In this document: in pieces, positions 54,595 through 57,448 of the stretch | How positions within the stretch are numbered: position 1 is the stretch's first letter | Layout: each line of letters starts with the position of its first letter | From: Bacteroidota bacterium | Lineage (GTDB): Bacteria > Bacteroidota > Bacteroidia > Palsa-965 | DNA: 64,000 nt | Direction of reading: 5' to 3' | Assembly: GCA_006218065.1 (NCBI GenBank) | Contig: VBWE01000003.1 | Coordinates: forward strand, 124,001 to 188,000 | Notes under the pieces: generated by a model | Told to the model about the DNA's origin: nothing | Database searches by the model: none | The model's input: the letters and a program-made list of their open reading frames with translations, nothing else | Made by a program: the position numbers and the translations under genes

Positions 54595-56127
54595 TCACTT
54601 TTGCACCGGCGCGGATTTTTCGGCGGACAGTTTGGCGATGTTTTTCCCGGTGAGGTGCGTTTCGATCCAAAGATCGTAAGCAAAATCACCGAACCGGCGA
54701 ACAAGCAGCGGATCTTTTTTCATTTCGGTGCATTCATCGCGAAGCAGGAGAAACTGGGAAACCTGTTCTTTCGCTGTGAGCTTGCTGATGCGCAGGAGAT
54801 AGAGAATGATGGTTTCTTCCAGCCTGGAATACGTGTTGTAGCGATACATCATTTTTTCGTTGCCGACCAGGCGCGAGTGCAGCAGGTCGGTATTGTCCAG
54901 CTCGAAATGGATCAGCAGTTCGATCAGCAGGATATTTTCGATCATGTATTTCGCCATGTGGTCGAAATCATAATTCACCAGCTTGTTTAACCATTTCAGT
55001 GCCGGTTTGAAACGGCCGGTGTTGAAATAATGGCACATGATGTTATAAGGAATCAGCGTTTTCCCGAAATGCGAAAGCGAATGATCGTGCTCCGCGAGAA
55101 ATTTCTCCATGACCGGGACCAGCGTATCCGTATGGTCGTATCGTCCGAAAGCGATATTCTGCGTCAGCCTCGAAACATTCACGCGTTCCTCCATCAGGAT
55201 GCGTTCGCTTTTGTTTTTGGCCGGGTAGGCCAGCACGCGCCGGCTGAGCGGATCGAGCCGTTTCATATCGCCTTTGAGTGACAAAAGCATGGACGCGTTA
55301 TTATAAAGATTGACTAAGCTGTTTGTTCCCCCGCTCAGTTTCGCGGTATCGGCCGAAAGCGCGAGATCGAGCGCTTCCAGCGCATAATCGAGCGCAGGAT
55401 CCAGCTGATCCATATACCGGTGATACAAAGTCAGCGTGCCGAGCCGGAGTATGGCCGTTTCCGATGTGGCGAAAAGCGGGAGTTTCCGGCGAAGTTCATT
55501 CCCGATGGTTTTTAAATCCAGTTCCTGCTTTTTGCTGAGCGTGGATGCCGACTGCCTGCTGACGAGAAAAATAAGCTGCATGGAAATTTTCCGGTAATGC
55601 AGGTATAGTTCGTGCTGCTGCAGCGCTTTGTTCTGCCTGACCAATTCTTTCTCCAGGAGCTCGCCGAAAAGTTCCGGGTCGCTGAGCCGGATGGTGATTT
55701 TTTCGATGAGTTGTCCCGCCTGCAGCACGAGCAGCGGCCGCCCGGACTGTTCAGCGAGGATGGAAAGTTTGCGTACCCGTTTCAGCGCGGCATCGTAATG
55801 ACCTTTCGCGAACAGCACGTCGGCATGCGCCAGCCGGCGCTGGAAATCGTAGTGAAAATCTTCGTGCTCGTATTTCCGTACAAGCACTTCCAGCAACTGT
55901 TCCGTGAGGTATGCTTTGGTAACGTGCGGCTGGTTGCCGAGAGACTGGTGGGCAAGGGCCTGTTTTACTTTTTTCGCATCGTAATCGCGCAGTCCGTCGA
56001 AAAAATCGAAAAGCCGGAGATACTTTTTGCCGTCTTTCGGGGAATATTTTTTCGCCTGGATCTTGAACGCGCGTTTTTCTTCGGCGTTCATCGAACGGAT
56101 CAGTTCATATAAGGAGTCGGCAGGCAT
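54595..56127 (-). CDS. Conserved helical protein, paralog of 13128-14642
   Basis: 510 residues (MPADSLYELIRSMNAEEKRAFKI). No signal peptide; all alpha-helical with TPR-like pairs (AHADVLFAKGHYDAALKRVRKLS, LDPALDYALEALDLALSADTAK, FNTGRFKPALKWLNKLVNY). The N-terminal 60 residues match the protein at 13128-14642 in spacing and key residues (YELIRSM/FELIRSL, RLFDFFDGLRDYDAKKVKQAL / RLFDAIDRQKKYDEAALKKKL). The family is not named; a scaffold or regulatory role is a guess. It sits 33 bases upstream of ridA and may lead that transcript. Confidence 0.75.
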   Translation of the reverse strand: MPADSLYELIRSMNAEEKRAFKIQAKKYSPKDGKKYLRLFDFFDGLRDYDAKKVKQALAHQSLGNQPHVTKAYLTEQLLEVLVRKYEHEDFHYDFQRRLAHADVLFAKGHYDAALKRVRKLSILAEQSGRPLLVLQAGQLIEKITIRLSDPELFGELLEKELVRQNKALQQHELYLHYRKISMQLIFLVSRQSASTLSKKQELDLKTIGNELRRKLPLFATSETAILRLGTLTLYHRYMDQLDPALDYALEALDLALSADTAKLSGGTNSLVNLYNNASMLLSLKGDMKRLDPLSRRVLAYPAKNKSERILMEERVNVSRLTQNIAFGRYDHTDTLVPVMEKFLAEHDHSLSHFGKTLIPYNIMCHYFNTGRFKPALKWLNKLVNYDFDHMAKYMIENILLIELLIHFELDNTDLLHSRLVGNEKMMYRYNTYSRLEETIILYLLRISKLTAKEQVSQFLLLRDECTEMKKDPLLVRRFGDFAYDLWIETHLTGKNIAKLSAEKSAPVQK

Positions 56128-56152
56128 AATGCGAACTAAAGTAACAAATACC

Positions 56153-56201
56153 GACTTTCAAACAGCAACTCTCAAAAGCCAACCCTCAAAAGCCAACCCT
56201 C
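56153..56201. repeat. Left arm of the repeat flanking the Mrr island
   Basis: Two perfect 14-bp units CTCAAAAGCCAACC (56171-56184, 56185-56198), i.e. paired heptamers. CAACTC...CCCTC (56166-56187) is the inverse of 57392-57413 with 17 of 22 matches, all differences being transitions. Confidence 0.7.
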
Positions 56202-56212
56202 TATCCATGACG

Positions 56213-56229
56213 TTGACAGGCTTAGCCAC
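56213..56229 (+). repeat. Left copy of a short direct repeat flanking the Mrr gene
   Basis: TTGACAGGCTTAGCC here against CTGACAGGTTAGTCC at about 57309-57323: one gap and few mismatches. Also AGCCACC (56225-56231) is the inverse of GGTGGCT (57303-57309). Possible insertion footprint. Confidence 0.4.
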
Positions 56230-56308
56230 CATGGTACCGTGCTATTAATAATCGTTTACAAATGTTTGTTGCCAAATAGTTTACTTGAAGATCAACAAAA
56301 TTAGAGAC

Positions 56309-56339
56309 TTTGCTTTATTAGTTTGGAATTGTAAATTTG
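56309..56339 (+). promoter_or_regulatory. Promoter of the Mrr-like gene
   Basis: TTTG at 56309-56312, spacer 19, TAAATTTG at 56332-56339. The in-frame ATG at 56285 lies upstream of it, so ATG 56384 is the start. Confidence 0.75.
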
Positions 56340-56383
56340 ATGGGATAGTGCTTATGCACAAGCCATACGCAATAATTAAAATT

Positions 56384-57229
56384 ATGAAAGGACCTCAATT
56401 TTTGACATACATGAACCCTCTCCTCGATACTCTCAAGGAAAATGGAGGTTCAGGCAATGTTGGCGACATTATTGATAAGGTAATACAGAGACTAAAACTT
56501 ACAGAGGACGCAGTTTCAAAAACCCTTCCCTCGGGAGGTTCGCGGGTGAAAAATAGAATTCAGTGGGCTAGATTTTATCTTAGCAAGGCTGGATTAATTG
56601 AGAGTGGCAGACATGGTGTTTGGCAACTGACAAAAAAAGGTTTTGAGTCTCATATGTCTGATGACGAGGTTTATACCCTTTTCAGAAATGTACATAAACA
56701 ATTTAAACAAGGATCCTCACAAAAGTCTAAGTCAAAAGAGGACAAAATAGATGATGAAGTAGTTGAAGACGAAGCACACGCAATTCAGTTGATAGAAATA
56801 CTAAAAAATCTATCTGCATCAGGGTTTGAAAAAATATGTAAACGCTTCTTGACTGAAATTGGAATACATGATATTGTGATTACTGGCGGTAGTAACGATC
56901 AAGGAATAGACGGAATAGGAATTATTAAACTAAATGATGTTGTTAATTTCAACATTGTGTTCCAATGCAAAAGATATAAAGATAGCGTGGCCCCACATCA
57001 CGTGCGAGATTTTCGTGGTGCAATGCAAGGAAGAGCAGACAAAGGCTTGATTTTGACAACTGGCAGATTTACTAATGAATCAAAAAGAGAAGCTTCCCGT
57101 GATGGAGTTCCTCCTATTGAACTAATAGACGGAGAAAGATTAATATCCCTATTTGAAAAGTATGAAATTGGAATGAAACCAGTGACTATTTATGAGATTG
57201 ACTCGGAGTTCTTTAAGAATTTTAAATAA
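56384..57229 (+). CDS. Mrr-like restriction endonuclease
   Basis: 281 residues from ATG 56384 (MKGPQFLTYMNPLLDTLKENGG). The N-terminal winged helix (Mrr_N type) contains RVKNRIQWARFYLSKAGLIES and GVWQLTKKGFE. A charged linker follows, then the Mrr catalytic domain: GFEKICKRFLTEIGI, GGSNDQGIDGIGII (catalytic Asp) and VFQCKRYKDSVAP (Q-x-K), then RADKGLILTTGRFTNESKREA. Type IV enzymes of this class cut modified DNA. Base composition is much richer in A and T than the neighbours, and codon use differs (many AAA, ATT, GAA). No methylase gene is present. It looks horizontally acquired. Confidence 0.92.
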   Translation: MKGPQFLTYMNPLLDTLKENGGSGNVGDIIDKVIQRLKLTEDAVSKTLPSGGSRVKNRIQWARFYLSKAGLIESGRHGVWQLTKKGFESHMSDDEVYTLFRNVHKQFKQGSSQKSKSKEDKIDDEVVEDEAHAIQLIEILKNLSASGFEKICKRFLTEIGIHDIVITGGSNDQGIDGIGIIKLNDVVNFNIVFQCKRYKDSVAPHHVRDFRGAMQGRADKGLILTTGRFTNESKREASRDGVPPIELIDGERLISLFEKYEIGMKPVTIYEIDSEFFKNFK

Positions 57230-57391
57230 TGTGTATAACAATGACTTCCCAAAAGCGGGACGAAAGTTGTGGCAGAAATTTTTAATAATTAATAAATATC
57301 AGTGGTGGCTGACAGGTTAGTCCTCCGAAATCCCCTCACTACGCTAAACCCCGAAACCGTTATAGTGAAGTAATTGGAATCGTTGCTGCTT

Positions 57392-57430
57392 GGAGATTGG
57401 TTTTTGGGAGTTGTTTTTTGGTATTTGAAA
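57392..57430. repeat. Right arm of the repeat flanking the Mrr island
   Basis: Heptamer run: TTGGAGA, TTGGTTT, TTGGGAG, TTGTTTT, TTGGTAT, TTGAAAA (from 57391). GGAGATTGG...GAGTTG (57392-57413) is the inverse of 56166-56187. Confidence 0.7.
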
Positions 57431-57448
57431 ATTCAGGATTTACTTTTA
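57417..57448 (+). promoter_or_regulatory. Promoter of the GNAT gene
   Basis: TTTG at 57417-57420, spacer 20, TACTTTTA at 57441-57448, only four bases before ATG 57453. The -33 element lies inside the heptamer arm. A leaderless mRNA is likely. Confidence 0.5.

What the first reader, a model, noticed from the sequence alone, without database searches (positions are those of the whole stretch)
56153..57430. Mrr-like gene island enclosed by inverted heptamer arms and short direct repeats
The AT-rich Mrr gene sits between arms of the heptamer type (56166-56187 against 57392-57413, 17 of 22 matching, all differences transitions). Inside these are short direct repeats (TGACAGGCTTAG / TGACAGGTTAG) and an inverted AGCCACC/GGTGGCT. 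It looks as if a defence gene entered the loop of a heptamer hairpin, which would make these hairpins landing sites for cargo.
Basis: partly seen in the sequence, partly recalled or inferred. Interest (0 to 1): 0.7.

Follow-up and report, generated by a model that had tools for sequence, protein, structure and literature searches.

The report
Stranded gene cassette inside repeat hairpin
A DNA-cutting defence gene sits between two halves of a repeat hairpin because it arrived as an integron-type gene cassette, one of about ten such orphan cassette islands scattered over this Bacteroidota genome, most with a landing-site-like leader but no integrase nearby.

Summary
Six CAANNNN heptamers (56159-56200) face seven TTGNNNN heptamers (57383-57431) across an AT-rich (36% GC) Mrr gene. 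The mechanism lies between the arms. Directly after the Mrr stop codon is an attC site (57229-57369; 42.6 bits, E 7e-8 in the window). Directly before the gene is a leader of about 131 bp (56241-56371) with a Bacteroidota-type promoter, ending where an attI/attC crossover would lie. The genome has 16 attC sites at 10 such islands. The leader occurs at 7 of the 10 and has no counterpart in 38 relatives. Relatives carry complete integron-like arrays whose integrase resembles XerA, lacks the IntI-specific domain, and is absent from this assembly.

The arms belong to a dispersed family of intergenic heptamer palindromes. In 2.11 Mb of this genome, the window holds the only same-theme convergent pair more than 200 bp apart, so a pre-existing hairpin was probably split. 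Hairpins as general landing sites are not supported: no other island has both arms, although 3 of 9 others have one nearby (P about 0.002). Both recombination sites of the Mrr cassette look decayed. Best reading: an orphan cassette.

The parts
56145..56200 (+). left heptamer arm: 8 units of CAANNNN type (second unit imperfect), strict CAANNNN x6 at 56159-56200
   Evidence: cyclic-profile score 44.2 with a profile trained without island arrays
56201..56240 (+). spacer with the left copies TGACAGGCTTAG and AGCCACC; function unknown
   Evidence: outside the conserved leader
56241..56371 (+). attI-like leader with Bacteroidota-type promoter (TTTG-N19-TAAATTTG at about 56311-56341); ends at the expected crossover, here AAGCCA instead of AAGTTA
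   Evidence: 84.6 bits with R2 (training member); 73% identical over 126 bp to C20:112990-113114; alignment A3
56384..57229 (+). mrr-like gene, 281 aa from the ATG at 56384 (open frame begins at TTG 56285); Mrr_N + Mrr_cat, putative type IV methyl-directed restriction endonuclease
   Evidence: Mrr_cat 98.2 bits, Mrr_N 83.7 bits; PADLOC PDC-S02 101.8, mREase_IV 85.7 bits
57229..57369 (+). attC recombination site, conserved ends and core; 8 of 17 stem pairs broken, so probably decayed
   Evidence: model R1, window not in training: 42.6 bits, E 7e-8 in the window, 5.8e-6 in the whole genome
57383..57431 (-). right heptamer arm, TTGNNNN x7
   Evidence: cyclic-profile score 50.0

Best explanation
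The island is a single orphan integron-type gene cassette. A circular cassette carrying mrr and its attC site was inserted by a site-specific tyrosine recombinase into an attI-like leader that carries a promoter, so the gene is transcribed from the leader. The leader and cassette lie in the loop of an intergenic heptamer palindrome that was probably there before and is now split by 1.2 kb. No array-type integrase is present in the assembly now, and both crossover sites of this cassette have decayed, so the gene is probably fixed in place and works as an ordinary Mrr-type restriction gene. Shown: attC homology, leader homology, genome-wide recurrence, absence of an array-type integrase from the assembly, arms. 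Inferred: the insertion reaction, promoter activity, order of events, Mrr activity.
For: attC after the stop codon: 42.6 bits, E 7e-8 in 64 kb, the only match in the window; 16 attC sites at 10 islands genome-wide with E <= 0.01, AT-rich against neighbours of about 0.5 GC in the islands profiled (the two C20 islands not profiled). The attC stem is real: over 80 sites 89.4% of cells pair, 399 double changes against 136 in shuffles, and slid controls fall to 30-45% (alignment fitted to the model). Leader: full copies at 7 places in G000, 72-95 bits, plus a weaker one at C46; all precede attC islands, and one copy (C6:98808) was found by a profile that did not contain it, as was the C68 half-copy. 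A3: TAnATTTG is invariant and similarity ends around AAGTTA. What follows differs per cassette and resembles what follows attC R' boxes. Relatives: 28 of 39 genomes (own included) have R1 sites; complete loci such as G004:C13 have an integrase 1.7 kb before the first attC. G000 has no array-type integrase (best 117 bits, XerD level).
Against: Stem arms of the window attC are poor (8 of 17 pairs non-standard) and the leader lost GTT, so activity cannot be read from it. Three Mrr orthologues (61-75% identity) found in one scan are not followed by attC, so this gene is not a habitual cassette. No empty leader was found, though dispersed attI sites should sometimes be empty. No strain without the gene was available. 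R1 was trained partly on a site from this genome (C20).
Confidence: 0.85

Rival explanations
1. The heptamer hairpin is itself the target: an integrase (or another enzyme) recognises the folded palindrome and inserts cargo in its loop, as attC hairpins are recognised.
For: Index island has both arms; theme-c arrays lie within 250 bp of 3 of 9 other islands, all on the leader (5') side.
Against: No other island has two arms; junctions are leader/attC, not arms; 11 short-spaced convergent CAA-type pairs in 2.11 Mb have no room for cargo; the enrichment weakens to P 0.009 and 0.025 at laxer cut-offs, and theme and distance were chosen post hoc.
Confidence: 0.1
2. The two arms are independent arrays that happen to face each other; no hairpin was ever split.
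For: Arms are no more alike than unrelated arms of the theme; single arrays are common (81 arrays, 11 close convergent pairs).
Against: Expected number of chance convergent theme-c pairs within 1.3 kb is 0.15 for 22 arrays; no other same-theme pair with such spacing was seen.
Confidence: 0.3
3. The leader and cassette are a composite unit (like the delta-attI gene cassettes of mobile integrons) that moves as a whole, so the leader is cargo and not the landing site.
For: Leader is a discrete element of about 131 bp at scattered places, never seen empty in 2.11 Mb or, as a full copy, in the whole genome outside the islands. PMC12901181 (passages) describes cassettes bearing delta-attI.
Against: Sequence right after the leader varies like cassette ends, as at a recombined attI; the left ends show no shared crossover motif (by eye).
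Confidence: 0.3

Closest known systems
Integron gene cassette / CALIN (cluster of attC sites lacking an integrase), incl. single-attC elements
   Same: attC at the 3' end of a gene, AT-rich foreign gene, no integrase nearby; CALINs and single attC are described in PMC9024848 and PMC8618304 (passages)
   Different: Islands begin with a shared attI-like promoter leader, repeated at 7 of 10 places; CALINs are not described this way in the passages seen
Cassette insertion at attG sites (Loot et al. 2024, cited in PMC12901181; the 2024 paper itself not read)
   Same: Cassettes scattered over the chromosome away from an integron
   Different: attG sites diverge from attI/attC (PMC12901181 passage); here the left site is a homologous 131-bp leader at most islands
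Integron integrase IntI (TIGR02249)
   Same: Array-linked integrases of relatives match both halves of the profile (195, 207, 167 bits for three tested)
   Different: Below the 265-bit cut-off, profile match broken at the IntI-specific stretch, best NCBIfam match XerA-like NF040815 (215, 215, 193 bits, cut-off 220), N-terminal extension of about 85-150 aa
Heptamer repeats such as the TAACTGA arrays (PMC4679880, passages)
   Same: Short heptamer arrays in intergenic DNA of some Bacteroidetes
   Different: Here units are degenerate CAANNNN with several themes and form convergent palindromes; the TAACTGA arrays are direct repeats of one sequence

Membership tests
Integron gene cassette | attC site downstream of the ORF on the same strand | tested here: met
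   57229-57369 +, 42.6 bits; stop codon ends at 57229
Integron gene cassette | attC folds with paired R and L boxes | tested here: inconclusive
   family stem supported by covariation, but 8 of 17 pairs broken in the window copy
Integron gene cassette | can be excised or inserted by an integrase | not testable with these tools
   needs an excision assay
Complete integron | intI-type gene next to the array | tested here: not met
   no array-type integrase in G000; so filed as an orphan cassette (CALIN-like), not as an integron
IntI integrase (for the relatives' loci) | IntI-specific additional domain | tested here: not met
   TIGR02249 matches in two pieces, the first ending at about 175-181 of 315, the second from about 232-245
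attI site (leader) | lies next to intI and accepts cassettes at G/TT | tested here: inconclusive
   ends at AAGTTA or GAGTTA before cassettes in 6 of 7 aligned copies, but no intI present; in G008 the sequence before a solitary island is 83% identical over 35 bp to that beside the integrase
Mrr / type IV restriction endonuclease | Mrr_N and Mrr_cat domains | tested here: met
   83.7 and 98.2 bits, above cut-offs
Mrr / type IV restriction endonuclease | cuts modified DNA | not testable with these tools
   needs expression and restriction assay

The most novel reading that the evidence does not exclude
This Bacteroidota lineage runs a distributed integron: instead of one attI beside the integrase, several promoter-bearing attI-like leaders are scattered over the chromosome, often beside heptamer palindromes, and a trans-acting XerA-like integrase without the IntI-specific domain loads cassettes (restriction and methylase genes among them) at all of them. 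The index genome has lost, or its assembly lacks, the integrase, leaving the loaded sites behind.
Probability: 0.3. Interest if true: 0.82.

Novelty: new variant of a known kind. Interest (0 to 1): 0.58.

Why it matters
Integrons have been reported as rare in Bacteroidetes. The IntegronFinder 2.0 passages say only integrases without attC had been seen there before, plus one complete integron in Salinibacter. A 14-sequence attC model built here finds sites in 28 of 39 genomes of this class, in several of them next to an integrase type that a search requiring the IntI-specific domain would be expected to miss. If confirmed, it would suggest that the IntI-specific domain is not needed for attC recombination, and that cassettes can be expressed from many chromosomal sites instead of one.

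Tried and rejected
Rfam found nothing above gathering scores in the island. The leader is not present in relatives: nhmmer over 36 loci gave no hit, best R2 score 20.2 bits. The 510-aa neighbour has no match above 38% identity and none full-length above 26% outside itself, so synteny through it failed. GNAT orthologues gave no clean empty site. Mrr orthologues L251-L253 are not cassettes. A possible second case of genes in long-spaced same-theme arms at C12:1244-3678 proved to be two complete hairpins. Arm-to-arm similarity as proof of a split hairpin was rejected. Folding the joined flanks gives a hairpin (-52.2 kcal/mol), but with arms of other loci it gives -34.9 to -58.9, so this is not specific. 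Literature: searches showed no listed paper whose title or abstract start describes dispersed attI leaders or an integron with a XerA-like integrase in Bacteroidota. Only listings and the passages cited were seen, and most subscription papers are not held.

Full report
Setting. The window is G000:C41:124001-188000 of a 5.26-Mb genome in 81 contigs; that it is Bacteroidota is inferred from the promoter type, the relatives and the Mrr orthologues, not from a named record. Between a 510-aa gene on the minus strand (no Pfam match; a family with 35 matches in this genome) and a GNAT gene on the plus strand lies an island of 36.4% GC in a window of 50.7%.

Check of the observation. The arms are as described (17 of 22) and longer: CAANNNN x6, with two further units upstream, and TTGNNNN x7. 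No other run of 4 or more exists in the window. Over 2.11 Mb of this genome there are 81 arrays (4 of 5 slots). The count at period 7 is 82 against 0-9 at the other periods tested. Arrays fall into themes (by eye), and convergent neighbours closer than 200 bp prevail (11 '+-', 2 '--', none '++' or '-+'). The heptamer palindrome is therefore a real, dispersed, mostly intergenic feature of this genome.

What lies between the arms. BLAST of the island against the own genome and 38 relatives gave short matches on either side of the gene. The right one proved to be an attC site. I collected candidates by a regular expression, aligned 14 and built model R1. R1 finds the window site, not in its training set, at 57229-57369 with 42.6 bits (E 7e-8 in the window; 5.8e-6 genome-wide). 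Over 80 sites the 17 stem pairs are 89.4% standard with 399 double changes (136 in shuffles); slid controls reach 30-45% (the alignment was fitted to the model and includes one training member, C20:114154). In the window copy 8 of 17 pairs are broken, so the site is probably decayed.

The left side. The leader (56241-56371) is 73% identical over 126 bp to C20:112990-113114, where it precedes another attC cassette array. Similar leaders stand before the islands at C19, C6 (two), C13 and C73, and weakly at C46. Model R2 gives 72-95 bits for seven copies, all training members; the second C6 copy was first found by a profile that did not contain it. A half-copy at C68 (26.5 bits) led to a further AT-rich open frame without a detected attC (L120). 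C2 and C63 share another 66-bp sequence instead (85%); at C20:47.7k no leader was seen. TAnATTTG is invariant and fits the Bacteroidota promoter consensus as I recall it. Similarity ends at AAGTTA; beyond it each sequence resembles what follows attC R' boxes. This is what a used attI site would look like. The window copy reads AAGCCA.

The system in relatives. R1 hits 28 of 39 genomes (own included) at E <= 0.01. Tyrosine recombinases of one type (at least 150 bits with the G008 protein) occur at 26 places in 20 genomes. At least 10 of these 26 have an attC within 5 kb on the same contig (a lower bound from 29 typed attC rows). Several others end within 1.4 kb of a contig end (compare). The three integrases tested match TIGR02249 below its cut-off and in two pieces, and match NF040815 (XerA-like) best; for the one compared with the PDB the closest chains are a XerC-like protein and XerA, then IntI4. 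G000 has only a XerD-level match (117 bits). In G008 a solitary island is preceded by a sequence 83% identical over 35 bp to the one beside the integrase; in G006 two pairs among three islands share 31-32 bp (87-91%). In G004, G009 and G018 the same comparison showed no such shared leader.

The arms again. A cyclic profile of the window's theme, trained without island arrays, finds 22 hits of score 28 or more in 2.11 Mb; the reversed-sequence control gives 21 at 25 and 9 at 30 against 37 and 17, so the profile alone is noisy. Such arrays lie within 250 bp of 5 of 20 island boundaries (4 of 10 islands; P 1.2e-4 with the index island, 0.0018 without it, 0.009 and 0.025 at laxer cut-offs). The other three are on the 5' side only. 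Island boundaries without a leader, such as that of the C20:47.7k island, were set by eye. Chance convergent pairs within 1.3 kb are expected 0.15 times. I read this as a hairpin split by the island, with about 60-70% confidence, and leave the enrichment open. One theme-c hairpin also encloses another palindrome (GAGCGCAGTCGA, C4:25869-26051), so such loops can hold other sequence.

The gene. Mrr_N and Mrr_cat are both above cut-off. One scan found three orthologues (70%, 61%, 75% over part) in other Bacteroidota MAGs, none with attC. One follows an open frame that I read as hsdR-like (no family search), one has its own heptamer hairpin just upstream (by eye).

Verdict. Ordinary parts (Mrr gene, dispersed repeats) in an unusual arrangement: an orphan integron-type cassette with an attI-like promoter leader, in a genome with ten such attC islands and no array-type integrase in its assembly. 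The landing-site idea is right in spirit (something is a landing site) but points at the wrong element.

Noticed in passing
G004:C13 (L099), G006:C1 (L179), G009:C109 (L111), G021:C18 (L188), G030:C46 (L106), G031:C37 (L189): Integron-like arrays with a nearby tyrosine recombinase; the three such proteins tested are XerA-like, lack the IntI-specific stretch and bear an N-terminal extension.
   Followed up: partly
L052:17060-17132 (G000:C20:137060-137132), upstream of an ssb-like gene: The first half of the leader resembles this region (31 bits), possibly a shared operator; SOS control is a guess.
   Followed up: no
G000:C4:25869-26051 (in L118): Heptamer arms enclose a GAGCGCAGTCGA palindrome, a nested repeat.
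   Followed up: partly
window 54595-56127: Member of a lineage-specific protein family with 35 matches in this genome, no Pfam family.
   Followed up: no
L151:9200-10615 (G000:C6): Another island carries a C5 cytosine methylase with an HTH domain behind its own leader.
   Followed up: partly
L252:3758-3850: A Flavobacteriales MAG has a different heptamer hairpin directly upstream of its Mrr orthologue.
   Followed up: no
window 28060-28210 and 31186-31234: Further heptamer palindromes of the TTTGAGA and GTTTCAA themes; the first has a loop of about 50 bases.
   Followed up: no
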